Below, one piece after another: positions 21,520 to 53,263 of a stretch of 64,000 bases of DNA (positions are counted from its first letter, which is position 1; each line of letters opens with the position of its first letter). The stretch comes from Lucifuga dentata (lineage: Eukaryota; Chordata; Actinopteri; Ophidiiformes; Bythitidae). Under the pieces are notes generated by a model that was given only the letters and a program-made list of their open reading frames with translations, was not told the DNA's origin and searched no databases. Where the stretch lies: NCBI GenBank assembly GCA_014773175.1, contig VXCM01002615.1:186001-250000 (forward strand), written 5' to 3'. Made by a program: the position numbers and the translations under genes.

Positions 21520-23042
21520 TTACAGAGAATGTAGCTCAGTGAGGGATCTCTTTTCCTGCTGTAAGAATTCCTGCAAGCTTCGTTTTCCCTGCCTGAAGTT
21601 GCTCTCCCTCCTTGCGAATGGCAAGATGACCTGGAGTCTGAGAAGAGTTTCAATGTTACTAAAACTTCTTATCTGTGATGTCTTGAGTGTATCAAGCACA
21701 GTAGTCGGGAGATAACCTGCCATGGGATCCAACCATTTCTCCTTCCATGACTTCATCTCAGAGGGAAGGGAGATTTGATCTGGCAAATCTTCCCTGTACA
21801 AGCGGAAAACAAGACCACTAAGAATGCTGGTTTCTACTTTGGACATTGCATAAGGCACAATCTCAAGACACCGCAAGGTATCCATTACCTTATCTGTGAA
21901 GAGGTCATCAATTTCAGCTATTGTGTACTCTACCACTTTCATGCTTACTGATTCTTTGTAAAACTCGCTCAGCGGCTCCAGAAGCACTGAATGTAACATT
22001 GTTACTTGGAGTTTAGAAGCTAATGTGACAGCTTCCTCAAAGCAGGCCCTGTGATGGGTGTCAATGTCACTCTTCAGTTTACTGAGGGATGCTCTCACAT
22101 CAGGCAAAATATTCACAGCAAGCAACATATCTAAGGGTTTACCCTGAAGAGCCTGACTCAGCTTTTTAGTTACACTCAGGATATTCTTCTGCACCACTGT
22201 TGAGAAGATGAACTCAAAGTTTCTGATTGCACTGAAGAACTGTGCTGCTTGTTGCTGGTTTGAAACAGTCCCTTCCCCCATCAGCTCATTCAAGCAGAGC
22301 ATGATTGCTTCTAAAAGCTCTACCATCACCTCGTGCATATCATGACTCTTCTCCCAGTTTTTGATGAGTTTGTCCCTCAGCTCATTACCCTTTCCTTCAT
22401 CGTGTTGAAACAAATAAATGATTGTTTCTTCCAGTCTGTTCTGGCGTTGTGCATCCTCTGTGAGCCACTGCAATATTTTAGCTATCAAAACAGAGCCATC
22501 AGCTACTTCTTCTGCAGGAGAGGATTTGGCCAGCCACACATTAAGGGACAAAGTGGAGCTAATGGTTCGTATAGCCTGGGGGTATTTCTTAGCTATTGCT
22601 ACACTAACAGCCCTCATCTGAGCTCCTAGTTCACCAACACTCAACAAGGCCTGTCCTCTACAATATTCCATGTTGAGCCCCCACTTCTCTGACAGTGAAG
22701 TCTCAATAGCATCTGCAAGCACAACTGGATCTTCACTGAAATGGATGAAAGCCAAGGTTTCCTCACATTGGATGTCTTCTTTGTTCAAGAACCTGATGCA
22801 CAGTGGTACATACAGCTCTCCGTCAATTTCCACAGCTTGCTCAGTTATAACTGTAAAGAAATGCGAGTCCCACAGTTCCTTGAGGATTTGTTCACGTAGT
22901 TGTGGGTCATAGAAAGACAGTGTTTGTCTTGGTCCTGGAATGACCTCCAATGTAACATCCTCATCCAATTTCACCTCTCCATCAGTGGGCTCCTCAGCTG
23001 CATTGGAGGCTTGTGGTTCTGTTGTTGCCTCTTCAGTGCCTC
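21520..23042 (-). other. Module 4 terminal exon of the THAP12-like gene (C-terminally short)
   Basis: A 1523-base last exon including the TAA stop. It has FFTVITEQAVEI, EYCRGQALLSVGEL, FEFIFSTVVQKN and EMKSWKEKW, then SNIETLLRLQVILP, and stops after SLTELHSL. The final stretch of 70 or so residues present in modules 1-3 and in single-body thap12 is missing. It is preceded by a 37-base micro-exon (23635-23599, VMETLQILKFNS). Confidence 0.85.
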
Positions 23043-26000
23043 CTGATTAAAAAATAAAATAACGTTAATGTTCCAAACTTTCAAATCAAAACATTTCTGC
23101 CTATTGCTAATTTCTGCTTGTTACTGGTTATGATTTAAGGCTGCAGTATGCTTCCTCTGACATGCCTATCAGAGAGTTTCATTCCAATGGTCAATTAACT
23201 CTGCCACTCCACCAGGCATACCTGCTTCACACAGCAATTGGCCAGGTGTGGTGAGGCATGAAAGAGGAGTTTTAATGTCTCTCAGGCTCTTTTTTTTCTT
23301 TCCATCACTGTTCATGTTCCGTGGAGAGAATTAAAAGTTAAACTGTGCTGCTATACTCATTTATATCCGTTTATAATCGTGTGGCAATCACAAAAATACA
23401 CAAAAGACAGAATTCTTGGAATGATCTCTCCTAAAATGAAACTTTGTGCTGTTATTGATGATGTAATCATGCTGAGATTACAAAATGCGCACACACACAC
23501 ACACACACAGCCCTCCCCTCTCTGACAGCAGCTTTTCACAGGCCGGGTCAGATGAAGCATACTGTGGTCTTAAGTTTTGGCAATCAGAATGCACTTACCA
23601 CTGTTGAACTTCAGTATTTGTAATGTTTCCATTACCTAAAACATAATAAACACAAAGTTATGTTTTTTTATTTTTGTTTGTTTTTTTATCAATTCTCTAT
23701 TATGAAATACTGATTGGAATGATAGTTTAAAAAAAAAAAACACCACGAGTATATTTTATTACATATTTTCTGCAATATTAAACATGTTTAAACAAAATAT
23801 GACACAAAGGATGGTACTTTGAGTTTACCTGGGAAACACACGGACTGCTCTCTGGATTGACCTCTATACACTTCTCAATGACCTCTGGCAGTCGTTGCAG
23901 TGTCACTGAGTGAGAAAGGAGCATCACACGATCCATTCTGTTACCCTTACTAACAGTGTTTTTTAAGAGGTCCCTCATGGAATTCAGAGTGGTCTTCATT
24001 AGGTCACATTCGATACTGACACTAGGCAGGACAGCTACAAGCCTAAGCAGTAAGGTAATAGTAGGATGACTTTTTGCCTCAGGATGGAGTAGTGTTTCAG
24101 AGATGGATGTTGGAAGAGCAACATCTGGATATTTCTCTGTCCAGACAGCAGCCCAGGCATTGACTTCCTGCTCAGCTGCATCAGGCTCAGGAAGGTCTGT
24201 CAGATAGAGGCTGAATGGTTTGTCCGTGGACTCTGGAAGAATGGGCTGTGGATTACATGAGGGTAGCAAAGACAGGACTGACAGAGCCTTCAGGTGGTTG
24301 TCTGAGAAGCTGTACTTCATTTCATCAATGAGACTCATCAGGAGAGGAACGCTGAGGTTTTCCCTGTAATATACTTCTGGGGACTCATAGCTGCTGGCTT
24401 CCTCTGAGAAACACACTTGTTCAGGAGCTACCTTAATTGCTAGCTGGAAGGCCTGCTCAAACCAAGGAGTGTGCACAGTGCTTATGCTTTCCAACATTTT
24501 GTGAAGGGTCTCTATGATTGAAGGGATTTTTTCCACTTCACAGAGGATATCAGCAGGGTTTCCACAGCGGAAGACAGTGCTGCAGTTTCGTAGAGGAGCG
24601 CACGCATTCTTCAAAATCACAAGAGTGACAATGAAATCCATACTTCTCAGAGCAGTAGAAAGAACTTGCGCATGAAATGACTTGGCACCTGAGGCACTAG
24701 AACTAACAGCATCCAAGCAGCTTAGGATACCCTCTAACGTGTCGACAAGTATGTCAAAGAAGTCCTCTCTTTTTTTCCACCTTGAGCAGCATGTTTCTGG
24801 AATTTCCTCCAGAGCCTCCCTTGGTGTGTTCAACAGCCCATCAACAGCCTGTGCTAGCTGTCCCTCCAAATCAGGAGATTCATCAAAGAACAGCAGCAGG
24901 TCTTCCGTGATATCCAACATTTTTGCTACAGAAGGGCAAGGCACACTTCCTGCCAGCCAGTGGGCAAGACCACAAGACTCACTAGGTGTTACAACAGAAA
25001 GAGGATAGGTTTTTAGGAAATCCAGAGACATTTTCTTCAGGCTTTGGTAACCCGAGCCCAAGTGCATGAATGCTTGTCCACGACACTGAGACATTGGTAA
25101 GCCCCAGTCTTCAGTGAGAATTTCTGCAAGCTTCTTCGCTTGTTTGTCAACATCACAGTTTTCATCAAATGGTAAGAAACCAATGAGCTCAACTTTTGGA
25201 GCAGATTCTCCAACATACCTGATAAAAACAGGCAGATGTGTCTTCTCAGCAATTTTAACTGGTTTGTCTGTGATAAGTGAGAAGAATGGAGATTCCTGTA
25301 TTTCCTTCAGTATCACATCTCTGATTCCCTTTAGGAGTAGTTTCACCATTTCGCCCTCACTTATGTTAGGTGTGCATTTGCTTTCGCTAAACCAGTGGCA
25401 CATGCTAAGCTCCTGGATGAAAAACTCTCGATCCTCTTCTGAGATTTCAGACAGACTGATATTCTTCTTCCCCAGGGTTGCAGCCAATCTGAACACCGTC
25501 TCCAGACTTTGACGATTATCTCCTGCGTGCCCATTCTCATCTGCTGGTTTCATCTCCTGGTCCTCGTTTTTGTCAGGAGATTGATAAACCTTAAGGTCCT
25601 CAGCTTCTTCTTTGTCACAATCAACTGCATATGCCAGGGAAAAAAACAATGTAAGAGAAAACAGCACAACAGAGAAAAGGATCATAGTGTTTAAAAAAAA
25701 AAAAGTTTGTTTAATTTCACTAGCATTACATTCATATTACTTAAATAACATAATAACAGCACTTAAAGGACCATACCGGCCATTTTGCATGTTTGAGCCT
25801 AATATATTCAATGTTACTGACAACCATTTCCCAAAGGATAAAACCATATTTCAGCTTTCCTGATATTTTGCAAACTCTCTTCATCTTTCAAAATCAAATA
25901 TTCAAGCAATACACCCACCTTAACACTGATGTTTCGCCTGCTGATAGTTATGCAGCCTTATGAAGTCACGGACTATATTCTCCGGTGGAGACATACATTC

Positions 26001-29000
26001 ATTCCGCACTTTTTATTGCACTTAAATACTAAAATTATTTAACTTCGAAAAACAAAAACAAAACAAAAAAAAAAAAACCCTGAATATACATGTTGTTCGT
26101 AATGATGGATTACCTATCCCAAGAACATTTCAAGTATCAATAAGTTGATTTTAATAGCATACCAGAATGAACTGAAACCAATGGTGGTCTGGAAAGTAGG
26201 GAAACAAAATTAATTCACCATTCCAGTCGTATGCTTTGGGAAATGATTATCACTGATGTTACATGTATGAAAATTGAATATATTAGATTCAAACATGCAA
26301 AATGGCTAGTATGGTCCTTTAACTAGTAACAAAAACAACTTGTGCAAATAATTTGCACTTAACATAATGGGAATTTATCTGTAAGATTTTCAGTAAATGT
26401 ACACATGAACATATCATATGGCTTAAAATACACTGTACTGTAGAAAAAGAGGGTAGCATGCAGACAGACTCATGTAAACTACTTCTGAGTCATTAATACA
26501 TGTATTAGAAAACTTGGGTCAAAAAAAACCATACCTTCCATGTTATTTTCAGAGTTCTTGATGAAACGTTTTGATTCCTTGTCCTGTGAATATATCCAGG
26601 TAGATAAAAATTAATCCCACATTAATTTCATTAATAAAATTAATCATTTGGAGCCATGATAAAGCACTTACCAAACAGATGCCCTCTAGGGCTTGAGGAG
26701 TAACCTTCAAACACTGGGTAACCATGCGGTCTAGGTCTCTGCTAAAGTCTGTGCCCACATGTAGCATGGCCAAGCATGGGGACCTGTCCTTGGGATTTGT
26801 ATTTCTCAGGTATTCTTGGAACCTCTTGTGACGCATTACTACACCACAGTCCTCAAGTGCTGTGCTGGGTAACACGGCCATAATCCTCAGCAGTGCATTG
26901 ATGTTCCCAAAGTACTGCATGAGGGGTAGACGCAAAGTGTGAAAAATAGAGCTTGGGATGGTTACTGATGCAACTTTAGTCTTCCATGTTACTCTCCAAC
27001 AACAAAGTTCTGTGAAGAAGTTGTCAGAATCAGGAAGATCACTGCTGTACAGAGGAGGTTTCGACTTCAGGCTTTCAAACATGTAACTCACTGTGACAGA
27101 GGATGGGACCAGGGAGAGGAAGTTCAGAGCTTCTTTGTGGTCATCTGAAAAATGGTCCTTCACAGCATTGATCAAGTTATCTACTAGAGGCACGCTCAAC
27201 CCATCTTTGTAGAAACCACTTGGCTTTATCATGCCATCCCTTGGTAAGGAGTTTTCAGGCACTTCGATCTGCACTCTTAGACTCTGAGCCATTGCACAGG
27301 CTTCATCAAACCAGTTCTGGTGAAACACCTTCATGTTTGTTTTCACTCTGTTCAGTGTAGCCACAATCCCGCTGATTTGGCAAAGTTGGGAAGCAGCACT
27401 GAAGTGGTCCTTCTGGAGACCTGCACTCAGTTCTCTGGTAAAAGAGGATGCATTCTTCAAGACTACCATGGCCATGATGAAATCAAAATCCATCACCTGG
27501 CGGACGAGTGTCCCAGCTTGTTCAGACACATGATCTTTCCATCTCTGTGGGTTACTCTTGATTTTCTCCAGAGTTTCGACTAGGGGCTCTAGCATCTGCA
27601 CAAACACCTCATATGAATCATGCTTTTCTTGCCAAAGGGCACAAAATTTCCCTTGTAACTCTTGGACCTTTTCATAGCTCTCCCTTAAGCCAACAGCAAT
27701 TACGTGGTCTAGCTGTTTTTCTAGAGTAGTACTACTGCCAAAAAACATCAAAACTTCCTCTAAAGTATCCAGGGCTCTTTTAACAGCAGGCACCGGGATG
27801 GATTTTGACCACCATGTGTTGAAGGAATACGAAGAGCAGTGTGTGCTAATAGCAAGAGGATACTTTTCCTGGATTTTGCAGGCAAAGGCTTTCAACTTGT
27901 AGGAAACGTCACCTGAGCCTAGGTATGCTTGACCTCTGCAGTTCTTTAAATCAAGACGCCACTCCACTGTTAATATTTCCATGAGACGTTGTACCAGAGC
28001 TTCACAGTCAAGATCGGCCTCAAGAAATCCCATCAGCTCCAATCGCATAACATCAAAACTGTCCACAAACCTTAGGAAGAGCGGAAGATAGTCTTTCTCC
28101 CCCAGCTTCACAACACGGTCGATGAACAAGGAAAAGAATGAACTCCCAATTTCTGTGAGATTTCTCTCCCTGATGACATTCTCGCATACAGTGAGAACTT
28201 CTTTCATTTCAGACTTGGTCACATATTCAACTTCACCATCCTGAGCAGCAGAAACCTCGCAAGGTTCCCTGCTTTGACTGCTACAAGCAGTCATCACTGC
28301 AGCCTGCAAAGCACATTTAAGAGCTTCTCTATCAGTCTCGGCACACTTCATCTCCACAAGCCTTTCAGCATCCATTTCTAGGTTTATGCGTTGTAATTCT
28401 TCTTCAGCATCCTTTTCAGCATGGTTTCCATGGATTGCCCCTGGAATGAAGAGGTGGGAATAATCTTGTAAACTAAGGTCACAGTTAGTTTTTAAATTAG
28501 CAAAATTAGTGACAAGTACTGGAAGGTAATTTGGTTAAATATGCATACTTAAGATTTAAGAGCAGCACTTAACTAGTAACAAAAACAACTTGTGCAAGTA
28601 ATTTGCACAAGTTGTTTTTGTTGTAATTAATGGGAATTAATCTGTAAGATTTTCAGTAAATGTACACATGAACTTTTCATATGGCTGAAAATACATTCTA
28701 CTTTAGAAAAAGAGGCAACATGAAGACTGACTCATATAATCTCCAAAAAAAACCACTTCTTCACTTCAAGCAATGTTTTCCAGCAAGGTCTTCATCAGGC
28801 AGACATCCACGTAATTAATACTGCATATAGTCTTTGAGAGAAATAACTCCACCTACAACCAGCTGATCACAAGACACAAAAATATATCTACTTCTGACAG
28901 TCCTATGACACTGGTCATAAACAAGGAAATAACTTACAGACACACAATACATACAGAAGATATAGACATGAAAGGACAACTATCTCATAAAAATGTCATC

Positions 29001-32000
29001 GTTAACAGGCAGAGAAAACTGAGGAAAAATACAATGGTAATGGTTTAAATTAAGCATCAGAGGGACATACCATGAGATGGGTCAGGTAACTATATTGTTA
29101 CGTTATTGTTTTAATATCAAAATGCTTGTTTAAAGCATTTCCTTCCAGGTCAGCATCCCAGGGGATTTTTTTTGACTTGTTCATTTACAACGCGTCATAG
29201 AGAACTGAAGTTTTCCGCCTGTGCCACATGTCTGTATGTAAGAAACTAATATATTCTCATTTTTGCCTATCATTTTATGTCATGTTGTCATTAGTCAAAA
29301 GTTGGTATTATCTGCTTGTATAAAGTGTTTGTGTTTTTGATAGCTTATAAAACTCAGTGTGCAGGATCATCTCTTTTTTCTTTACTGTAGTGTGCTGATT
29401 TTGTCCTGCACTTGATCCTAACTCAGGTTGGATTTGCACACTATCCATCTTATACTATCAAAATGCATTGTAGTCATTGTACTGCGTGATATCCATAACC
29501 ATGTACACTGCTAAATTAGAGCAAATAACTCAAGATAGTTTCTCACCTTGGGAAGGCTTTTCTTTTGTGTACTCATCCTGTAAGACATAAGAACAATATA
29601 ATTTAATTTCAGTTGGAAGAATTACCTTTTCACTAAACTGGGACATGTCATTTCAAGGGTTTTCTACTTAAGAAAATCAACTTACCATTTGCAGCAACTG
29701 CAAAACGTCTGGATGCTTTTGCACATAGGATTCCACCATTTGTTCAACATTGAAGTGAACATCTTGGTTCACAAAGACATAGGCCATGCTGCACTGTCTT
29801 TGGTCCTTTGGTGTGGCGCTTAGGTAGGAGTGGCACCGCTCCAGTACCATATGGTACTGTCCATACACATCTGCTTCTGCATTCACACATGGAACAGTGC
29901 CCAATACCCTCAGCAAACTCTGCACATTTGGGTAAAACCCAATATCTGGGATCTTCAGAGTTGCAAAGACAGTGGTTGGCAGGATTCTGCGCTTGCTGGC
30001 ATGTCTCCACTTCACTTCCCAGCACCCAAGCTCTTCATAGAATGTGTCAGGCCTTGCGAGGTTGTTCAAGTTGGCATCTGCTACCTTATCCCTGCGGATA
30101 CTGAAATTGTGGTCAGCCATGTAAGATGGCACCAAAGAGAGCCATCGGAGAATCCTCACCATCTCTGTGCTGAACACTCTTTTGACCTCTGCAACAAGAT
30201 ATTGCAAGATGGGCCGGCTCAGACTTTCTCTGAAGAAGTCATCCAGTGGTGTCTCAGTTGTGTCTCCTTGGGCCATTTCTGGTTTAGTAACTTCAACTCC
30301 CAGCTTCTTTGCACGGCCAACTGCATCTGAAAACCATTTTCTGTGGAATATTGCAATGTCCTGTTGGTATTTGCTTACCAGCTTTAAGGCATTGGAAATT
30401 TTATACTGCAGAGTACTACTGATGCTGATTATTCCCCTGAGACTCGTGTTGAGTATGCTCACACAACAGAGGGTGTTCTTCAGAACAACAAGTGTGATGA
30501 TGAAATTGAAATTCTTCAATATTGGCTTGAGCTTTGCCAGCTGCTCAGCAGTATCTTCATCTACTTTTGAAATCATCTCATTGATGCAGTTAAGGAATGG
30601 CTCAAGAACATCTAACATGGTCTGGAAAGCATCAGTACCGTATTCCCAATTTCCACTGACAGCTGCCTTGATTCTGTCCGCTTCTCCTTTAATATGTCCA
30701 TATGTCATCTGAATCTTTCCATCCAATCTTTTGCACAGCTCTGGTGTTCTCCTGAGTAATGCAGCAACCTCCTCTACAGTGTCTGCAACACTTTGGATGG
30801 CGGGCACAGGCATACAGCGAATAATCCATATGTTGAAGGCATAGGGGTCACTTGGTGACAGAACTACCTGTGGGAACTCGTGAAGAATCCTGCAAGTAAG
30901 GTCTCGCATTTTTTGACACATACTGCCTGTAACCACATAAGTCAGTCCTCTGCAATGTTCCATCCTCAGCCCACACTTATTTTGTAACTCTGAGAGAAGT
31001 ATGTAAAACAGATCATCAGCACTTACATCACAGGGAAGGAACCCAATGAGGTGCTTTTGAGGGAAGCCATCTAGTGTGACAGATCTAATGAAAACTGGAA
31101 TCTGCTCCTTCCCTTCTATTTCTGTCACATCCTGAAGCAGAACAGAGAAGAATCGGGCCAACCTGAGGCTGTTTTGAATCTCCTCACGTATGAGGTCTTC
31201 ACTGACATGAAGGATTTCTTTCTTGTCAATTTTCTCCACAAAGACAGGATTGAGAGTCTGCTGACCCCTTGCACCTCCAATCGGTTCATCTGCGTTTGCA
31301 CCATTAATGCTGAATCCAGTCAGGGCCAGGATTTCCTTGAAATACATTTTAAGAGTCTCTTTTGCATTGGAGGTGGCTGCATCCTCCTCTTGTGTTTCGT
31401 TATCTCTTTGCAATTCAGGTGTTGCACTGTTCTCTCCAGACACTTCCTCTGTCTGCACAGTTACTTCTGGTGTTTCTGTGTTTTCTGATGAAAAAAGAGT
31501 TAATGTTGTTTGTACAGTTGAAACAGTAAAAAATGATCAAGTTCCAGGCTAAAATGCATAGAAGACAGAAGCTATCAAAACATCCCAGATAGTGTTACAT
31601 CATGTTTTGCAATAAAACATTTTTTTTAAAGAATGTCCTGAGACAAGTTAGTGTACCTTTTGTTTTTTTCACTGATGGGGGTTCCTCTTCTGTCTGCGTA
31701 GATGAAAAAAAATAATTGGTCAAATGAAAAGCTTGCATTTCCGTTCAAGAATTGAAAAAATAAAATAAAAATGCAAAGTAACTTCAAATGTTAAATTAAA
31801 CACTTACAGGATCTCTAGTCCGTTTCCTGCTGTAGGTTGACTGATTGTTTCCTGGTGTGGTGAAATCAAATATTGTTGGAACTGCATCTTCCTTCAAGAC
31901 ATAACTGGAGGTGCTCTGAAAACATAAACCAGGCAATCACACCTTCAAGCTACTCTTCCATGAAATAAGTAATTCCCATAGTCCATTAATGTTATTATTG

Positions 32001-34367
32001 TATAATACTGAGATTAAAGAACTCTGCATCCACAATAGCACTGGGTTACATACAGAAATGTTCAAAAATTATCTAAAAAGTGTATTTTGACAGTTCAGCA
32101 GATGATATCACTTCTGTGTTACACTCTTTATTGACCCACTGCTTTTCTTCTACAAACAGCCTAATTAAGGTTAATAAAGAACACCAATCTAAATTAAAGT
32201 CATGTTGACAGGATGGAGGTTGCACAGAGATTGCTTGGACAAATTGATTAATGACGAAAATAAAACTAATTGGATGGCTTCATTAGTGTCTTCCAACATC
32301 AAAATAGGGTGGCAGATAGCTCACTCAGAAGAACACCGGTTACACATTGATCAGATAGTGAATTCTCAACGACATGATCTGATCGAAAACTATTTTGTTT
32401 CAATAAAGTGAATGTTTCAATAAGCTGCATCAAACTATGTATGCTACTTGGTAATACAATTTTGGCAGGTATAAAATGAATAGTTAGCAGTAGTTAGCCT
32501 GTAGTTTTCAATCACTTGAAAAAGATCAGTGCAACAAGGTTATCATAATTTGTTGTTGCTGTTCATACCAAACTTACTCCTCAGAGTGAACAAGCATCAA
32601 TTTTTTTTCTTACCTCTTGAGAGATCAGAGAGGGCTCAAAGTGCTTTGCACAAAGGCTGTACTGCTTGTGCAACTGCTCAGGAGCTTCTGAGGCCAAATC
32701 CTGGCGATGACAGTTGTTCAACCACTGTTTGCAGCTGTAAAATACAATAAAAAGGCATCAACTGTTGGTATCAACAAAATAGTTTTTAAAATACAACAAC
32801 AATACACCAGTGTTTTTTTTCCTGAAGGGTGCCCTACAGATCGACATGAGCAAGACTCTTCACTTAGGCTGCTTTTTTGTCTAGTTAATTAGGTTATTTC
32901 AGATCAACTCATGAAAATGAAGGGAAAAAAAAATCAAAAAACCAAAGTATGGCAGATTGTAAGAAAACAATGCATCATTCAAAGAATATTTCAAGGTGAA
33001 AATCTTCTCATTTTTGAACAAAATCCTTAAAAAGGCAAGACATTTAGTGGGTGTAATGAAAATACAAGGCTCATGTTATTGCATGTATGCAGACAGACAC
33101 ATGCATGCGCGTGCGCACACACACACACACACAATATTCTTGTGCTATTAGACCAAAACAATGAATATTTGTTATGTTTGGCTTATTTCTGCAATGTGGG
33201 CACATGATCATCCCCCAAGTATGATGATGCTACAAATATGTTCTATGTATTGTATGTCAACACTGTATGAAAATATTAACATAATGTTTTGAAAGTATTA
33301 GGAACATAAACCCACCTCTACAATGGAAATGTTAACAGAAAAACAGAAGCTATGACTGACTGCTGTAAAAGTTTTCCTAAGTTTATATCAAGTCTTTTCC
33401 TTCTTCATGCTTTTCCTCCTTTCTACTTTCATAGATATATGTAAGAGAGAAGGGAATTTCAGATTTGAGAAAGAGATTTAGTCAATTTCCTTCAAGTTAA
33501 ACAAATTCATTGAATGTGTCCATGAAAAACAATCACATTCTAAAGGACATATATTATTTAGAGCATCACAACCTGCAACCTGATATTTCCTGCATAAATT
33601 CCCTGTTTAAATTCATCTGAGAGCATCATACATTAGTTTGGTGTCACTATAAATTATTCTTTGAAAAACAGAGCCATCAATTAGGCCACAACAGCTCAAC
33701 AGAGGGCGCTGGACTGTGATTCTACTGGTCACATTACCTGTTAAATAGCATAAATACAAGTATTACTGCTATTGCTATTATTATCAATGTAAGATATAAT
33801 ACTTTTTTTTTTAACTCACTTAATACAGTAAAGTGAATAATGGCCACATAAATCCCGAATGCGCTAACCGGAGGTGTTGCTAAGCTAGCTCATCTAGTCA
33901 CGTTACCGCACTATTCAGACGGTAGGTGTCGTTTAACGATCATGGCGATTTAAATTACAGCACAAAAAGTTTTCGAGTCTGATTTTCAATGAAGTAATGC
34001 ATGAATGCACACGAAGATTAACTAAAAGATCCAGTGACACCCTAAGCGCCGGTCACAAAGTCTGAATGAGTGAACAGTCTAATTGCCCGGGACTTTTCTT
34101 CCAGGAGTAACGATAGTCTGCGCCATTTTCAACAGAGTTGTGTCACTCTGTTAGCTAGCATGATATGAAGCTAACAGAGGTGCTAAAGGCGGGTAGCTAC
34201 TACCATATTCTTTTTGCACACTCAGCGGCTCATTTATATTTCAAATTTCAATGAAATAAATGCAGCTCTTACCGTTCGGGGTCCAAAGGAAAGCTAAAAA
34301 GCGGGGTGGTGACATCGGATTGATCTCGGTGATAGCCACAGTTCGCTGCAGCGCAGCAGTCAGTCAT
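21520..34367 (-). CDS. THAP12-like protein with one THAP finger and four tandem transposase-derived bodies
   Basis: Eleven coding exons on minus: 34367-34273, 32734-32614, 31915-31808, 31693-31657, 31484-29686, 29577-29547, 28440-26672, 26583-26535, 25624-23829, 23635-23599, 23042-21520. All junctions are GT-AG. Lengths sum to 7365 bases (2454 aa plus stop) with consistent phases. Residues 1-90 form a C2CH THAP DNA-binding domain (CAAANC at the start, LCAKHFEPS near residue 60, DAVPTIF in exon 3). Then come four copies of the body that THAP12 (p52rIPK, a repressor of the PKR inhibitor P58IPK) carries once: residues about 121-720, 731-1320, 1337-1935 and 1948-2454. Each shows an FFS/FFT..D/E block, CRG(Q/L), and a (F/M)xFI...LKN helix; the fourth stops early. 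It lies head-to-tail downstream of ordinary thap12, so it arose by gene duplication followed by internal exon duplication. Function is unknown. Separate genes are unlikely because modules 2-4 lack starts and THAP exons. Confidence 0.85.
23829..25624 (-). other. Module 3 body exon of the THAP12-like gene
   Basis: One 1796-base exon starting at an acceptor (TATGCAG|TTGAT). It has SPFFSLITDKPVKI, SQCRGQAFMHLGSG, MDFIVTLVILKN and VNAWAAVWTEK. It is preceded by a 49-base micro-exon (26583-26535, DKESKRFIKNSENNME). Upstream intron sequence happens to stay open and would add a hydrophobic leader (MILFSVVLFSL...), which is intronic. This module has lost more of the Cys-Trp signature than modules 1 and 2. 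Confidence 0.85.
25767..26318. mobile_element. TTAA-type MITE, copy 2 (intron before module 3)
   Basis: A 552-base element flanked by perfect TTAA repeats (25763-25766 and 26319-26322). Terminal inverted repeats start AGGACCATAC and match each other and copy 1; its interior is inverted relative to copy 1. The homologous intron before module 2 carries the undisturbed site (CAGCACTTAACTAGTAAC), confirming insertion boundaries and target duplication. Confidence 0.92.
26323..26490. repeat. Intron repeat, copy A (partner at 28573-28745)
   Basis: About 165 bases that match 28573-28745 at roughly nine in ten positions by eye, including the AACTAGTAACAAAAACAACT start. Both copies lie in the intron between a micro-exon and the next body exon; the shared TTAA site sits about 139 bases from the body acceptor here (before the MITE inserted) and about 129 bases in the other copy, so they are positionally homologous. 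Confidence 0.8.
26672..28440 (-). other. Module 2 body exon of the THAP12-like gene
   Basis: One 1769-base exon, same phases as module 1. It has SSFFSLFIDRVVKL, NCRGQAYLGSGDV, DFIMAMVVLKN and ELCCWRVTWK, with FGNINALLRIMAVLP near the end. It is preceded by a 31-base micro-exon (29577-29547, DEYTKEKPSQ). By eye it is roughly one-third identical to module 3, so the modules are old. The N-terminal part before the FFS block is acidic and differs between modules. Confidence 0.85.
28573..28745. repeat. Intron repeat, copy B, containing a perfect 19-bp hairpin
   Basis: Partner of 26323-26490, without the MITE. It contains an exact inverted repeat: arms 28579-28597 (ACAAAAACAACTTGTGCAA) and 28603-28621, loop GTAAT. 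The other copy has only the left arm and loop, so the right arm was created after the copies separated. Confidence 0.85.
29686..31484 (-). other. Module 1 body exon of the THAP12-like gene
   Basis: One 1799-base exon, entered in phase 1 and left in phase 0 at a strong donor (ATG|GTAAGT). It has the DUF4371-like core: RFFSVLLQDVTEI, then MEHCRGLTYVV (Leu replaces the usual Gln), NFIITLVVLKN, and a complete hAT-type C-terminal region (ELGCWEVKW, FYPNVQSLLRVLGTVPC). Reading through the donor meets TGA within three codons, so intron retention would give a one-body protein. The preceding micro-exon (31693-31657, 37 bases) encodes TEEEPPSVKKTK. Confidence 0.85.
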
Positions 34368-34379
34368 TTTGGAACTGCA

Positions 34380-36000
34380 ATGTAGCTAGCTAGCAAGTTA
34401 GCTAGCTTAGCTGGCGATAGCAAGGTGATAAGCGTACTGTGTGAGCAAAGCTGCAGAAGAGTCTACAGATTCATGTCTGGGGCAGAAGCTGCAACCGACA
34501 CAGCTGAGTGTCGACGTTACTTCTTTTCGCTGAAAACCTCTTTGTTAGGTAAGGAACCGACCAAGTCCATGCTTTCAAAAGTTGATGTTGAGTGGTGAGC
34601 CGAAAGCGTGTTATCACAGCAACCAGGAACTAACCCGTGCTATGCAAATATTAACCAGCAGAGGGCAGAGTGGAGCCGTCAGCCCTGGCCAAAGAGCTTC
34701 ACTGTCAAGATAGTTCACGTCCTAAAATTATCATATTGCAAATTATCACAACCCCTCTGCTGTCACTAATTTTTGGTGTTTATAATTGACAGTTGATTAA
34801 AATGACTACTTGCTTGTGCTCATCTTGGTTCATTTTTTTTGTGTGTTAACCCAACTGTTGTATGGACTATGGGCATGATTTTCATTACATGATAACATTC
34901 ATTACATGATAACATTACTGTAGATGTTACTTTGCTTCCATTAAATATAAACCTCTCGTGAATATTAAAGTAATTATATCTTCATTCATATGCATTTTTG
35001 ATACCAGCAAAGCGGGTATAGACAATGGATGTTTGGATTAAAAAAAAAAAAAAANNNNNNNTTTTTTTTTTTTTAACGTAGATTTGGTTCATCTCATGCT
35101 TAGTGGTGCCCTCCACAGGAAGTGAAATCTAAATTTAAACAAATATCCCTCAGAATGGATAATTTATAAATAATAAATCTAACTGACCTTGTATTTCTGT
35201 TTTAACCTAACCCATCTGAAAGCACTAAATTCTTTTGCTATCTGTAATATCAAACAAAATTATCAGTCAAGAGTATATTCTGTATATACCGTATACATAT
35301 GGCTGAAAATGTTTTAAATAATGATTCTGATGATAACCTTGCGTTAAGTGACACACTCCATACAACAAAACAAAGCTCTCTGCAGGGACATTCCAAGCAA
35401 TCTCACCACCCTGTTACTCTGAGAAGGAATTTAAAGTAGCTATAGAAATAAAGCACTGCATTATGTGAAATACAAATTATGGTTGAGGTAACTGACTCTC
35501 ATAACCAATTTTGCACCAGTATTTTCCAGTTTGGATCTCCTGAGATTTAGCTAAATTTAATTCCTTGCTTGCTTATTGTAGTTTGTCTTAAATAACACAA
35601 GTCACTGGAACAGAATTCTTGAGTTTTATTAATATCAATTGTAGATTTCAAAACATGTTTCAAAACTTAGTTAAGTATAAAATATTCATACACTTTGAGT
35701 TGATGACCACAAAATGTTATTAAACCCAAGACTACTGCATATTTAATACAATGATTCTTGACAGTGGAGTCAAGGAATGAAATAGAATATTCATTACTTA
35801 ATTACAACTGTGAATATTCTTTACTTAACACTGCTGGAACAACTCATTTACTGTCATTCTAAACTAAAGAGAAAACTGACTCACCCCACAAAAGACAGAA
35901 ACATAAGAGCAAGAAAGTTAAAAAGTACTATTTAAAAAAAAAAAAATCTCNTTTTTTTTTTTTTTTTTTTTTTTAAACCAGATCATTAAAACGTTTGAGA
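34380..36000. other. Interval between the two THAP12-family genes
   Basis: Contains the presumed promoter of the four-module gene just above 34367 (with several GCTAGC-like repeats and higher CpG) and the 3' flank of thap12. A 7-base N gap is at 35055-35061 between an A run and a T run, and another N is at 35951. No coding exon was seen. Confidence 0.5.
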
Positions 36001-36014
36001 CACCAGCACTGTAA

Positions 36015-39000
36015 TCACATATTCTTCCTGTCAGGATACATCTTGACGTACATCTCAACCATTGAATCCAGGTCATGGTCTGCATTGCAGTTTATGTTCA
36101 ACAGAGCAAGGCTTTTTGATTTGAGTTTGTCTGGCATGTTCTCCATGTACATTTTGAAGCGCTGAAAGGCATCATCACATCTGTCCTCCAGAACAATGGC
36201 GGGCAGGGTGCCAATCGCTCTCAGGACTGCAAGCATGTTTGGGAAGAACTTCACATCAGTCAGTTGCAGTGTTTCCTGCAGACTGGAGGGCACAGTGTCA
36301 CCCTTGCTCGTGTGGCTCCATTTAACCCACCAGCAGTGCAGCTCCGCAGGGAGAGTTCCTGCATTTGGGATGTCAATTTTATACATCTGTACATTTTCCT
36401 CCTCAGGTTCAGTAGACTTATTTTGCCCTATGATTGAGGGGATCAATGAGAGACATCTCAGAGCCTTCAGGTGGTTCTCAGAGAAGAGTTCATTCAACTC
36501 TTTGAAGACATGGTTCACCACAGGGACAGACACATGCTCCTTGTAATAACTCTCTGACCGAATCACACATCCAGGTTCTGACTGGTGTTTTCTCAAGAAT
36601 GACCGAGGAACCTTGACAGGGATCTCAAGCACAGCAGCTAGGTTAACGGCTTCATCATGCCAGAACTCATGATACACATCGATATTGTCAGACACTTCCT
36701 TCAGGGAGTGCAATACAGCTTTTAAACTGTTTGCAGCAAAATGGGCCTCCGTCACATTCCCCTGAACATTCCTCCCTAATGCCCGAGTTAGTGACAGAAT
36801 GTTTTTCAGCACAATCAACGTCATGATGAACTCAAAATCAGCTAGTGCTTTTGAAATCGCTAATGCTTCATGTGTGGCTTGATCACTCCACCTCATGTCT
36901 TCGTTGTCATGCACACTGTCCACACAGAGCAGTAACGCCTCGACGAGTTCAACTGCCACTTCAAAAGCATCATGTCTTCTGGTCCAGTTGGTGCGACAGA
37001 CTTCCTTCAGTTCATTAGCTTTCTCCTCTTTGTCTGGGTAGAAGATTGAGATGGCATGCTCCAACTCCAAATGCAATGAGGAGGATTGACTAAAGAATGA
37101 CACTATCTTCTTCAAAGTTGACATGACAAGCTGAACCCCTGACAAAGCCATACCACTGGCCAGTGACATATTCAACGTACAAGTAGATCTTGGTGTAAGC
37201 ACTGCCATTGGATATTTCTCCGTCAGTTTGGCGGCAAATGCTTTTATTTTATTAAAATGAGTGCCAGAGCAGGAGTGAGCCTGACCTCTACAGCGTTCCA
37301 TGTTCAAGCCCCATTTGTCAGTTAGATCAGACAATAGTTTGTTTTCATCTCCTTCAAAGGACAAGAATCCAGCAAACTTCTCCTGTTGGCAGTTCGCCTG
37401 GTCTACATAACGCAAAAAGATGGGAAGGTACCACTCTCCTGAGATTTTAACTAAATCATCAGTTATTAATGAGAAAAGGTTGTTTTTCTTAACTTCCTCC
37501 AACAGATTACTGTGGATGCATTCCTCACACACCTCAATCAACTGATTCAGCTGCGCTGAGGAGCAGAACTCCTTATTCTCAGGGTTTGCATCATACCTCT
37601 TCTGCAGGGCTTCATCTCCGCAATTCATGCGATATTCTAATAATGCCTGAAAGTTGCTCGAAGCGAGTTCATTCTGTTTATTATCAGCAAGCCCTAAAGG
37701 AATGTTTTGCTCTCCCAACAGTACAAGAACTTCAAATAAAGATTTAAGGTACTCTTTGTATTCCTCTTCCTCTGGGATTGTCTGGGCATCATCATCATCA
37801 TTACCTGTCTCTGCCTGAGTCTGTTTGATTTCTACAGGGGGAAAAGAAATTGTTGTGAGAGGGAAACCAAATCTGTTATTCAACTTGTGGGAGTTGGATA
37901 ATATCTTTCACTGACCAGCAATAAATTTATATAAGCGTAGCACATTATAATTATGAGGTATGGAATAAGGCCATAATGAGGCAATGACCTAAATAATAGT
38001 AATTAAGAGTAGTCAGCAAATTTAATGATATTTCTACTTACTTTTCTTCCTTTTGCTCTTGGTTTCATCACCTTTGGCCTACCATATTAAAACGACAAAT
38101 TGAAAATCTGCTTTATTCAAAATAGATAAATGAAATTATAGTGATTCTTCTTCTTAATTTAAAGATTTTTACCATCTCTTTCCGCTTCAGTTGTCCATTC
38201 TGAGGTTGGCTTGGCACATCAAAGACTGTTGGTATGGCATCGTCCTTCAACACTTTACTCTGAGATTCCTGAAAACAAATTCAAGCCAAAAAAAAAACAA
38301 AACAAAACAACTATTTATACAGATAAAGGTTGAATCGAGAATATCATTTATGTAACCCTTGCATTAAAATTAACTATCTATATTAATGTGCAATAAATAC
38401 TGCAACTTACAAAATAATAACTGATAAAAGTTGCAGGGCTGATTTAACCCTTTTTATGATCTCATGGCATTTACATTTAAAGCTCTGGAAACTCTGGGCT
38501 CACTCACTGCATGTGCATTTTGTAAACACAGCTTACATTATCAATCGAAGACGGTTCAAAATGTTTTCCACAAAGTCTGTAGTATTTGAAAAGCTGCTCT
38601 GGTGATTTTTCTTGAAGATCTTGCCGACTGCACTTTTCAACCCATGTCTTGCATCTGAAAAAAAGAAATCAAACCAAATGAGTTAAGTCAAATTTAGATC
38701 TAAGCTTCAGAAACAATTATTTCTGATCTTTAAAATTAGCTTTCCACAGTCATTTCGATTTAGATAGTAGTGTGCAGGATATATATGAATACAATGAAAC
38801 ACCAACAAAGCTACATAAAAATGCATTAGGGTTTCCCATACAAAAATAAAGCCAATCTAAGAATAATGAAATTATTAGCTCATGCATGAGAATTATATTT
38901 TTATATTATATATCATGAAATATATGATTGATATATGATATCAAGAAATATACATGATATATATTATATATCATAACATATAATATGAAACAATGGAAAT

Positions 39001-39684
39001 AAATGAATTTGATGAAAAACAATGAAAATTGTTAAAAATCGTAACTGGTATGAAGTAGCAATGCAGGCAGTTTTTTTTTTTTTTTTTAATTAATGCTAAT
39101 ATTTAAGGCACCCTTCAGTAGTTATTCACTAAGTGACCATTTAATTCACGTGTACAAATTTATTTTTTTCCAATAGACTCCTTGCTGCTCTCTTTAGCCC
39201 AGCTCGTTGTAATTCAGTGAAAAAAAAATAGTAGAAATGTGCTTTTATTACCAACTTTATCAAACATTCTAACACTGAAGAAAGTTCAGGTTATGATGTG
39301 CCACTTGTGCACATTTTAGCATTTAGATTTGGCAATATTTAATACAGGACCTGTTACATATCGAAACACAATCATTAAAATGCTGTAGAAATAACATTCG
39401 TATGTTATATATGCAATCTATATGCCATACATTGCACGTATAACATATACATCTAAACATTTTTATAGTTTACCCAAAAATAAGCTTGGCTTTAACCTAG
39501 ATGCTTAGACATCTTTCCATCTGCAAATGACTGCAAAAACTGTGGCTCCTGCTAGCTTGACAGAAGCTTGTTAGCATTGGCATCGATGTTAGCATTACCT
39601 TTCTGGGTCCCGGGGAAACCTGAAGAGAGGCTCAGAGGTGGATTTGCCGCTAGTGCAGTTCGGCGCAGCGCAGTGGTTTTGCAT
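36015..39684 (-). CDS. thap12: THAP12 (p52rIPK), single-body form
   Basis: A nuclear THAP-domain protein known in mammals as a regulator of P58IPK, the inhibitor of the kinase PKR. Coding exons on minus are 39684-39599, 38654-38537, 38268-38173, 38078-38042 and 37831-36015. Splice sites are GT-AG, phases agree, and the total is 2154 bases, or 717 aa (human about 760). The THAP finger reads CAAPNC, RFPRDPERCKTWVEKC and LCGKHFEPS, followed by DAIPTVFD. The fourth exon is 37 bases and basic (KSKRKK). The body has FSLITDDLVKISGEWYLPIF, MERCRGQAHS, FEFIMTLIVLKNILSLTRA, ELHCWWVKW and FFPNMLAVLRAIGTLP, all close to human THAP12. The C-terminus is shorter than in human. It is the upstream neighbour and probable parent of the four-module gene, sharing its exon layout up to the body exon. 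Confidence 0.95.
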
Positions 39685-40294
39685 GATAAGTTTGTGTCAT
39701 CAACCTGTTGGTTTAATTTTAGATCTTTAAGCTAACTATTAACTGTAAGATATCTTAAGCTAGTAGCTATCTAGCTAGTAAGCTATCTTCCCGGAACAAC
39801 AAAACAACATCCGGTTGATGTTTTCAAAACAAAATCCACATTGACAAAAAAATTTCAAACTGAGATGAAAATTTGGGGAAACGTCGTGTAAATCTACAGG
39901 AATCCGCAATATGAAATGTGACCTGCTTTTTTTTTTTTTTTTTTTTACAGTTTGTGTAATCTAAAGCATTAACTACCTAACATTATTTTTGTGCTGCTCA
40001 ACTAAGTTATGTTACATTATCAAAACCCATCAACATAAAAAATGAAAGTAATAACCCACCAGAAAATTCAGAGAGATTCATTTAATCTTATAATGGTATA
40101 TTTGTTCCTAAAGCCTACATACAAGCGATACAAGCAGCCTAGCAGATAACTCTTGTATAAACTTTAGGTGTTTTGATTTTATTTTGAAGGCAAAGTTTTG
40201 GACAGCTTGATGGCTGTTTGGTCTGCAGCGCGCGTTTTGTCTCTATCCCACAATCCTTAGCAGTCTTTTCAAACCAGGGTTGAAGGGAGGCACN

Positions 40295-42778: not shown

Positions 42779-45302
42779 ATGGACAACGTTGCAGTTTCAA
42801 GACGAAACTACAGCAGTAAAAAAGTGAGTCATAAGAAAGTTAATGATATTCACCAAACGTTTGTTTGTCTTAGTTGCTTTGACTCCCGAGCTAGATCCTA
42901 AAATTGGCTATCTCAACCTAATCAGATGTTGTTTCTTCTTCTTTTTTTATTTATTCTGATAGGGAAATAAAGAGAACGCCCAGCCCACACATGGAAGCAA
43001 ATCTCTTCTCAAAAAAGATGTACCTAAAACAAAAACCACCTCTGTGACGCCATTTAAAATAAAAAGTAATGAAAAAGAGGCGACCTTGACAAAAGATGGT
43101 GCCCATAAAGTGAAACAGAGCAAGATGAAGCTCACATCTGAAGAAACAGTGAAAAAGGCGAGGACTGTGCAGAAAGATGGGAAGGGAGGTGGTGCTAAAC
43201 CACAAACTTACAGTCAGGCCTTCCTCACTGACCAGGCTGTGAAACACAGAAAACTTGTTGCAGAAGCTCCAAAACCGCCTGCTACTGTGTCCTCATCAAA
43301 ATCTGCTCCAGGCATGTACAAAGGCAAGATTGTCCAGTCGAAAATTGGATCAATTTGGAAGTCAAGTGCCACAGTGGGAGAGGCCGGTCCAAAACCAACT
43401 GCAAAACCATTAGCACCCAAAACAGAAAGTCAGAGGTTTGGAAATCTGACAAGCAGGCCCAAATCTGTTTCTGACATGCCTGGGTGTGGCATGCAAAAGC
43501 CAAAATCTGCACCTGCAAGGTCCAAGTCGGTGTCAGATGGACCTGCTCCAGTGTCCAAGCCTGCTGCCTCCAGCCGTCCCACTGCTGGATTTTGCTCTGC
43601 TTTGGCTCCTGCCAGAACTATTCCAGTAACACTAAAAGGTCCCAGTTCCAGAAGTACAACTACGGCTCCCAAGGGAAGAGGGATTGAAAACTCAAAGCCA
43701 AAGATTCCAACAGAGAAGAAGGTCAGCAAGCCTCCTGTCTCAAGCACCCTCAGCCAATACAGACTTAACACGCAGACGGCCGAGGAGAGAAGGTAAGCTT
43801 TTGGTACACACACACACTCATCAGCAGATGTTTGCCTCACTGTTCTCTGCATATGAGCAATACCTCAAAATGTTTTTGCATTCCCACCCCAGAGCAAAAC
43901 TGGCCGACTGGCAGGCTTCCAAGGGAAAGACTCTGAAAAGACCCTCCACGACAACGGCAGCACCCCCAAAAACCAGAACAGCCATGAAACCTGGGAATTG
44001 TCTCGAATCCCAGCCTCATCCTTGTGTCGCAGCGCAGCCTTCTGTCCAGTGTGACCCTGAACCTCTTCTGGATGATCAAAGGTCAGACACTGCTGCTCAG
44101 TGTGCAGACACACAGGAGGCAGAAAGAATGACACACAACTCAAGTCAGCTGATCATGAACACCACCCTGGACCTGCTAGAACACTCAGATGTGGATCTGC
44201 CAGTTGACCCACAGACCAGAGTGGATGATGTGAGCAACAGTCAGGACTTCTTCTGCAGTTTCAGCTGGATTAAAAATGTTGGTTTTCACTTCAGTGACAC
44301 TCCTGGTCTCACAGTGACGCTCCTGGTCCTTCTGTTTATTTTGTTTTACAGATTGTGATAAACTTGTGTGAAGTCTTGGAGGCCATGGTGACACCTTCTC
44401 AGTGTGAGGATGGTAAGTTTTTTGGGTTTTTTTCCCCCCTTTAATTTAATAGAGATTGAACAACTGGTGTCCTGATTCATTTGAAGTACTTCGTTATTAT
44501 TTGGAAATTCCGCTCCAGTAGAGCATTTCAATAAATCTAGTGGTATTTATTTTCTATCTACCATCAAGTCTTTTTTCTGATTGCAGTGTTATAAATGCTA
44601 AAACAGAATTCTTTTTTGATATGCTGAAGGTCTCGTGATTTACATCAACACTATAATTTTTGTCTCTTAAGAACCTCCACAGATGAAAGATAAGTGTCGT
44701 GATGCTGAAATGGTGGACAATAAGCCAAAAGACGAATGTGAAGAGTTGTCAAATGTAGTACCTGAGGACGGTGTTGAGGAAATGGAAGATGAAGCAGGAA
44801 GAAATGATGACCTGAAAGTGGAGAAGGATGTTGAGGAAGATGATAACAATGATGACAAGAGTGTGATTAAGAACACACCGCAGATGGAGGAAGCTTCAGT
44901 GGTAAAATACAGTGTGAAGACCACTCCATTCCTGCAAAGGTGAGATCACTTTGTTATCCTTTGACACAATATTCCAAACTATTTCAATTTGTCGCATTTT
45001 TTATTGCAGCATTTCAAATGTTTGCCTTTTCATTTAGTGTTAAAAGGACGATTGAAGGTGAAGCCAGCACACGTCAATCCAGACGAAAGAGCAACATCAA
45101 GGATCTGAAGTTTCTGACTCCAGTGCGCCGTTCCTGCCGCATCCAGCGCCAATCCTCCCACCTGCCTGCCATGCTGGTTGATCACGACCCGTGTGTGTCA
45201 TCGCTGGCTGAGCTGGTGAAGCTGGATGATGACGCCAATGCCTACATTTACAGAAGAAACCCTGCACTTCTGGATGACCTGCCAGACCAGGAGAGGCCAT
45301 GA
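42779..45302 (+). CDS. CKAP2-family spindle microtubule-associated protein
   Basis: Cytoskeleton-associated protein 2 family (CKAP2 or CKAP2L), proteins that bind and stabilise spindle microtubules and are removed by APC/C at mitotic exit. Coding exons on plus are 42779-42823, 42963-43792, 43893-44229, 44352-44412, 44672-44939 and 45038-45302; total 1806 bases, 601 aa, consistent phases. Acceptor 42746 begins the exon with the start codon. A KEN degron (GNKENAQ) lies at residues 16-22. Residues about 25-290 are Lys/Ser/Pro-rich and disordered. The family signature AEERRAKLADWQASKGKTLK spans the second and third of these six coding exons. An acidic segment (VEKDVEEDDNNDDK) precedes the C-terminal TPVRRSCRIQRQSSHLPAML...CVSSL motif. 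I cannot decide between CKAP2 and CKAP2L; the short N-terminus lacks the usual CKAP2 start. Opposite in direction to its neighbours. Confidence 0.85.

Positions 45303-46642: not shown

Positions 46643-53263
<6,621 letters not shown>

What the first reader, a model, noticed from the sequence alone, without database searches (positions are those of the whole stretch)
21520..34367. A single gene encoding one THAP finger and four tandem THAP12 bodies (about 2454 aa)
Four large exons, each equivalent to the single body exon of THAP12, are joined through micro-exons with matching splice sites and phases. The summed coding length is exactly divisible by three and has one start and one stop. THAP12 is normally about 720-760 aa with one body. 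A four-headed, transposase-derived protein with one DNA-binding finger is an unusual architecture that I do not know to have been described. Because the bodies are divergent yet all open over 500-600 codons, the array appears to have been maintained by selection for a long time.
Basis: partly seen in the sequence, partly recalled or inferred. Interest (0 to 1): 0.92.

Follow-up and report, generated by a model that had tools for sequence, protein, structure and literature searches.

The report
Four-bodied THAP gene of ray-finned fishes
This piece of a cavefish genome holds one gene for a giant protein with a single DNA-binding finger and four linked, probably inactive transposase-like bodies; the same gene is found in fishes from bowfin to tuna, and what it does is unknown.

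Summary
Observation confirmed. The protein is identical to a deposited Lucifuga dentata model, LDENG_00052380. It is not peculiar to this genome: three searches yielded 135 distinct long relatives, 132 of them with four bodies, from percomorphs, eels, bony-tongues and herrings to bowfin; many bear the name si:dkey-250d21.1, 'uncharacterized'. Eighteen contigs of 7.7-10 kb carry one unbroken four-body frame with no room for the introns, so they are probably transcripts. One paper's proteomics table lists the zebrafish protein. Bodies 1, 2, 3 and 4 each form one clade in 17 sampled fishes (100/100 support) yet are only 23-31% like each other or the THAP12-like body next door: the array was complete before teleosts and holosteans split. 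The bodies look like dead hAT transposases. Best reading: a nuclear, DNA-anchored scaffold or transcription regulator. Structure and age are well supported; function is inferred from THAP12. The gene model is known; I found no description of the architecture in ten paper searches.

The parts
34273..34367 (-). exon 1: start codon and first half of the THAP finger (C5, C10 zinc ligands)
   Evidence: Pfam THAP residues 5-88, E 8.2e-17
32614..32734 (-). exon 2: second half of the THAP finger (W36, C60, H63)
31808..31915 (-). exon 3: end of the finger (AVPTIF) and start of a basic linker
31657..31693 (-). exon 4: 37-nt micro-exon before body 1, with a second basic cluster (KKTK) of a bipartite-NLS-like stretch
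29686..31484 (-). body exon B1 (about 600 aa); the most conserved stretch of the protein is in its C-terminal half
29547..29577 (-). micro-exon M1, 31 nt
   Evidence: rank 1 of 27 candidates, 0 of 200 shuffles as good
26672..28440 (-). body exon B2 (about 590 aa); the body with the best DUF4371 match
26535..26583 (-). micro-exon M2, 49 nt
   Evidence: rank 1 of 22, 8 of 200 shuffles as good; 53% identical to bowfin
23829..25624 (-). body exon B3 (about 599 aa)
23599..23635 (-). micro-exon M3, 37 nt; the matching stretch is about 690-1350 aa long in the otophysan proteins examined
   Evidence: rank 1 of 19, 0 of 200 shuffles as good
21520..23042 (-). body exon B4 (507 aa) with the only stop codon at 21520-21522
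36015..39684 (-). neighbouring single-body THAP12-like gene (five exons: 39684-39599, 38654-38537, 38268-38173, 38078-38042, 37831-36015; 717 aa), paralogue and probable THAP12 orthologue
   Evidence: same five exon phases, finger 60% identical over 84 aligned residues, body 25-31% identical

Best explanation
One protein-coding gene, head to tail with a single-body THAP12-like gene, makes a protein of about 2,450 aa: a zinc-binding THAP finger, a basic NLS-like linker, then four non-equivalent THAP12-type bodies joined by short linkers that are encoded by micro-exons. SHOWN here: the exon structure, the deposited identical model, four bodies in 132 of 135 relatives retrieved, one-to-one orthology of each body across 17 sampled fishes, intact zinc ligands, loss of one hAT catalytic acid in all four bodies. 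INFERRED: that it arose by repeated duplication of a [micro-exon + body exon] unit behind one THAP-encoding head, before teleosts and holosteans split; that it no longer transposes anything; that it enters the nucleus, that the single finger picks DNA sites, and that the four bodies, above all bodies 1 and 2, are docking surfaces for partners and for self-association, so that the protein works as a promoter- or chromatin-bound scaffold, as its single-body relative THAP12 is reported to do in human cells.
For: Gene structure and phases. Identical deposited protein and 170-171 long hits per search, 120 listed each; 132 of 135 distinct retrieved have four bodies. 18 of 18 contigs labelled only 'lgn' (7,662-9,973 nt) hold one unbroken four-body frame with 342-1,147 nt to spare, against 5,483 nt of introns in the window gene. 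Zebrafish protein in a proteomics table and its mRNA changed by several flame retardants. Module clades 100/100. Zinc ligands C5 123/125, C10 122/124, C60 128/128, H63 127/127 of the sequences that have the column. Basic clusters RKR...KKTK in the seven proteins printed, with an isoleucine/proline variation in bowfin. Bodies 1 and 2 keep more near-invariant sites (263 of 600, 247 of 590) than the finger (21 of 88). Human THAP12 binds promoters and activates genes, and only the nuclear form rescues (preprint PMC13404843, sections read); THAP12 is proposed to tether LDOC1 to chromatin (PMC12853606, passages); THAP0/PRKRIR is reported to homodimerise through residues 1-488 (PMC6402169, passage).
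Against: No direct functional datum for the four-body protein. The Lucifuga record is probably an annotation of the same assembly, hence not independent. The meaning of the source label 'lgn' is not given by the tool, and 7 of the 18 lgn frames start inside exon 2 with no THAP match, so finger-less products are possible. Three of 135 relatives have three bodies (P0115, P0120, P0133) and at least two counted as four have a broken body (P0121, P0122). The finger is less conserved than bodies 1 and 2, so DNA binding need not be the main role. No HCF-1-binding motif [DE]HxY in 133 of 135. The structure model of B2 itself is poor (mean pLDDT 56).
Confidence: 0.62

Rival explanations
1. Mutually exclusive or terminal body exons: the THAP head (exons 1-4) is spliced to one body at a time, giving several single-body isoforms, and the four-body product is minor.
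For: All four body exons start in phase 1, so exon 4 could be joined to any of them in frame. Body 1 is followed by an in-frame stop just past its donor (read-through frame ends at 29677). Syngnathus isoform X2 (P0120) has only three whole bodies.
Against: 18 contigs without room for introns carry all four bodies in one frame; annotated models in many fishes are about 2,450 aa; the micro-exons keep phase and are the best candidates in their introns. AATAAA signals also lie in the introns after bodies 2 and 3 (26017, 23760, 23672) but that hexamer is common by chance.
Confidence: 0.1
2. Transposon antagonist: the dead bodies bind transposon ends or live hAT/P-type transposases and block them, a domesticated repressor.
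For: DUF4371 proteins are hAT-type transposase relatives that often carry a THAP finger and a hAT dimerisation region (PMC3985635, passages); catalytic acid lost but fold apparently kept.
Against: Slow, species-tree-like evolution of every body with no sign of an arms race; no transposon ends were tested; bodies 1 and 2 are the most conserved, which suits a fixed host partner better.
Confidence: 0.12
3. Cytoplasmic stress scaffold in the PKR/P58-IPK pathway, the older proposed role of THAP12 (52 kDa repressor of the inhibitor of the protein kinase).
For: One relative is named that way in public annotation (P0079); the preprint reports human THAP12 in nucleus and cytoplasm.
Against: The preprint's outline heads a section 'THAP12 regulation of Complex I biogenesis is independent of PKR signaling' (section not read) and reports that the cytoplasm-restricted form fails to rescue. 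The zinc ligands of the DNA-binding finger are kept in the four-body protein.
Confidence: 0.06
4. Annotation or assembly artefact: separate genes or decaying copies joined on paper.
For: The exact protein comes from a predicted model; the window assembly has N runs elsewhere (8 N in 34368-39700).
Against: No N in the gene; the same order of four bodies in 132 of 135 relatives; one-to-one module clades; intron-less contigs.
Confidence: 0.02

Closest known systems
si:dkey-250d21.1 / LOC... 'uncharacterized protein' of teleosts and bowfin
   Same: The same gene: orthologous over the full length, 55-87% identical over 100% of the query for the full-length listed models; identical deposited protein for Lucifuga dentata.
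   Different: Nothing essential; otophysan models have an extra low-complexity stretch of about 690-1350 aa between bodies 3 and 4.
THAP12 (THAP0, PRKRIR, DAP4, P52rIPK)
   Same: N-terminal THAP finger, same five-exon head with identical phases (compared with the neighbouring single-body gene), homologous body.
   Different: One body, about 717 aa for the neighbour, against four bodies and 2,454 aa; the bodies are only 25-31% identical to the neighbour's.
DUF4371 / hAT transposases, structure example Hermes
   Different: One catalytic acid replaced by a hydrophobic residue in all four bodies (motif position recalled); four bodies in one chain; host gene with introns and long conservation.
THAP9 and P-element transposase
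   Different: Body is closer to Hermes in the structural list; four bodies.

Membership tests
THAP proteins | N-terminal C2CH THAP zinc finger with the AVPTIF end | tested here: met
   Pfam PF05485 E 8.2e-17; ligands and P/T/F positions near-invariant; match to solved THAP domains of THAP2, THAP1, THAP11
THAP12-type proteins | Body homologous to the THAP12 body | tested here: met
Alignment to the neighbouring single-body gene, 25-31% identity.
THAP12-type proteins | A single body after the finger | tested here: not met
   Four bodies; the neighbouring gene has one
hAT (DUF4371) transposases | DUF4371 / RNase-H-like hAT body | tested here: met
   DUF4371 above cut-off in P0001 (47.9 against 32.1 bits, body 2) and in the neighbour (32.4 bits), but only 3 of the 5 window bodies match at E up to 1 and bowfin and Paramormyrops fall below the cut-off; Hermes heads the structural list for the neighbour's body, at a Z that the tool calls middling for helical models
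hAT (DUF4371) transposases | Intact catalytic triad (D, D, E) | tested here: not met
   The site after CRGQAY, where hAT enzymes have the second D (recalled; consistent with the Hermes alignment range), is L, L, M, L in bodies 1-4; first D kept in B2 and B3, Q in B1, E in B4
hAT (DUF4371) transposases | C-terminal hAT dimerisation domain PF05699 | tested here: inconclusive
   No Pfam match; divergence may hide it
hAT (DUF4371) transposases | Terminal inverted repeats and 8-bp target duplications around the gene | not tested
   Not examined; long single-locus orthology argues against mobility
THAP-HCF-1 regulators | HCF-1-binding motif [DE]HxY | tested here: not met
   Absent from P0001 and the neighbour; 2 of 135 relatives have it

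The most novel reading that the evidence does not exclude
A covalent transposase oligomer turned regulator: hAT transposases such as Hermes act as multimers (recalled), and here four dead, specialised hAT-type bodies have been fused into one chain, so that self-assembly is built in and each body could hold a different partner while a single finger anchors the whole to DNA. If so, this would be a hard-wired, asymmetric version of a transposase assembly, kept since before the teleost/holostean split as a multi-partner chromatin hub.
Probability: 0.2. Interest if true: 0.8.

Novelty: new variant of a known kind. Interest (0 to 1): 0.58.

Why it matters
Domesticated transposases usually give one DNA-binding domain and one body (general knowledge). 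A protein that strings four diverged bodies behind one finger, in a fixed order since before teleosts and holosteans split, shows that transposase-derived parts can be built up into large multi-module regulators. It is present in zebrafish and medaka models, so its function can be tested directly, and it sits beside a THAP12-like gene whose human counterpart is reported as a disease gene and regulator of mitochondrial complex I (PMC13404843), which gives a concrete first hypothesis.

Tried and rejected
Structure of body B2 with 32 orthologues: mean pLDDT 56, pTM 0.48, not used. Foldseek alone on the neighbour's body model: no match at E 0.001 or better; best rows were Spt6 and a transposase (ISCth4, E 0.058), Hermes not among the 50 listed; only the VIA-align second look put Hermes on top. 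Sequence search of solved structures with the body profile: no credible match (best E 0.048, KIF3A). NCBIfam: nothing. Non-neopterygian relatives: none among the names in the three lists, but at least 36 of the 171 hits were never listed, so absence from sturgeon, bichir, sharks or tetrapods is not shown. Gar's model has three bodies (P0133); I cannot tell loss from an incomplete assembly. dN/dS could not be computed: no nucleotide sequence of relatives was at hand. Order of the body duplications: not resolved; the tree warns of long branches meeting. Separate-gene and alternative-exon readings are set out under rivals.

Paper searches (10 of 10 used). Only two papers hold 'dkey-250d21.1'; I saw one passage of each. 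Subscription journals are mostly not in that library.
Full report
WHAT IS THERE. On the minus strand between 34367 and 21520 lie 11 exons that splice into 7,365 nt, 2,454 codons and one stop. They encode a THAP finger (exons 1-3), a basic linker (exons 3-4), and four large body exons joined by micro-exons of 31, 49 and 37 nt. Phases repeat: every micro-exon, exon 4 included, starts in phase 0 and is 1 mod 3; every body exon starts in phase 1; bodies 1-3 end in phase 0. A search of each intron for bridging exons put the called micro-exon first of 27, 22 and 19 candidates, and shuffled introns did as well in 0, 8 and 0 of 200 trials (weights from memory, so M2 in particular is not strong on this test alone).

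IT IS A DEPOSITED, WIDESPREAD, UNNAMED GENE. The full-length protein is identical to hypothetical protein LDENG_00052380 of Lucifuga dentata, which also identifies the window as that ophidiiform cavefish (lineage). Three searches, with the Lucifuga, Albula and Amia proteins, gave 170, 170 and 171 hits at E 0.001 or better, 120 listed each: 135 distinct proteins in all. With a body profile built from the four Lucifuga bodies, 132 of 135 have four bodies; P0115 (goby), P0120 (pipefish isoform X2) and P0133 (gar) have three. Pieces of one body were merged for this count; P0121 and P0122 have a damaged body. The named sources are ray-finned fishes, among them eels, Albula, Paramormyrops, clupeiforms, Chanos, salmonids, cod, tunas and bowfin. 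The bowfin protein is 60% identical to Albula's over its whole length.

EXPRESSION. Eighteen of the 135 proteins come only from a source labelled 'lgn', on contigs of 7,662-9,973 nt. All 18 have four bodies in one frame, leaving 342-1,147 nt; the introns inside the window gene's coding region total 5,483 nt. I infer that these are assembled transcripts; the tool does not say so. Seven of the 18 (P0034, P0052, P0053, P0056, P0087, P0088, P0092) start at a methionine inside exon 2 and have no THAP match, so a finger-less product or an incomplete 5' end cannot be excluded. In zebrafish the gene's mRNA changed with several flame retardants (PMC8063052, passage), and a proteomics table of PMC5595969 lists 'Uncharacterized protein si:dkey-250d21.1', as I read the row under accession F1QRG5 (passage).

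AGE AND SELECTION. A maximum-likelihood tree of 67 bodies from 17 fishes plus the neighbouring THAP12-like body puts all B1, all B2, all B3 and all B4 each into one clade (100/100, in 100% of 200 bootstrap trees), with holostean bodies at or near the base of each clade. So the four bodies were in place before holosteans and teleosts split and have not been homogenised since. The bodies are 23-29% identical to each other and 25-31% to the neighbour's body, while Lucifuga and bowfin keep 67, 64, 45 and 48% in B1-B4. Near-invariant sites (97% or more) make up 263 of 600 positions in B1, 247 of 590 in B2, 154 of 599 in B3, 66 of 507 in B4 and 21 of 88 in the finger. The bodies thus diverged early and then were held, B1 and B2 most strongly. 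This is purifying selection by inference from protein conservation; dN/dS was not measured.

ORIGIN. A second THAP gene, 39684-36015, same strand, ends 1,647 nt upstream; it has five exons with the same phases 2, 0, 0, 1, 0, one body and 717 aa. The two fingers are 60% identical over 84 aligned residues. I take it as the THAP12 orthologue (architecture, DUF4371 match, and recalled WNT11-THAP12 synteny; the wnt11 reading at about 8520-8984 is by eye). The repeating [micro-exon + body exon] unit suggests that tandem copies of the last two exons of a THAP12-like gene were spliced together behind one head. The order of the duplications is not resolved, since long branches meet in the tree.

HOW IT MOST LIKELY WORKS. 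Shown: an intact zinc finger and basic clusters of NLS type, four conserved bodies. Inferred: nuclear entry, site choice by the finger, docking of partners by the bodies. The model is human THAP12: promoter-bound activator of complex I assembly genes, with only the nuclear form rescuing (preprint PMC13404843, abstract and sections 10, 11 and 13 read), proposed chromatin tether for LDOC1 (PMC12853606, passages), reported homodimer (PMC6402169, passage). The HCF-1 motif used by THAP7 and THAP11 (PMC6944463, passages) is missing in 133 of 135, so partners must differ. That the conserved surface lies in B1 and B2 rather than in the finger argues for a docking function that matters at least as much as DNA choice.

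NOVELTY. The gene model is public, so the gene is not new; the protein is named 'uncharacterized', and ten searches of an open-access library found no paper that describes its architecture (listings seen, a few papers in part). I file it as a new variant of a known kind: a THAP12-like, transposase-derived host protein with four bodies in one chain.

Noticed in passing
25763-26322: An inverted repeat (53-nt arms, 91% complementary, 454 nt between) with TTAA at its outer ends sits in the intron before body 3; it looks like a small non-autonomous DNA transposon.
   Followed up: no
26319-26452 and 28569-28715: A block of about 130 nt is repeated at 92-98% identity in the introns before bodies 2 and 3, far more alike than the bodies; a recent repeat or conversion, not a relic of the old duplication.
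   Followed up: no
window 23599-23635 (M3); P0119, P0123-P0127, P0129, P0131, P0132, P0134, P0135: Otophysan relatives (characiforms, catfishes, electric eel, cyprinids) have about 690-1350 aa of low-complexity, acidic, repeat-like sequence between bodies 3 and 4, where Lucifuga has 12 aa.
   Followed up: partly
P0034, P0052, P0053, P0056, P0087, P0088, P0092: Seven contig-derived proteins start at a methionine in exon 2 and lack most of the finger, a possible alternative 5' end.
   Followed up: no
42963-44358 (+) and about 47000-53000 (-): Reading frames that look by eye like a CKAP2-type protein and an STT3-type oligosaccharyltransferase; not tested.
   Followed up: no
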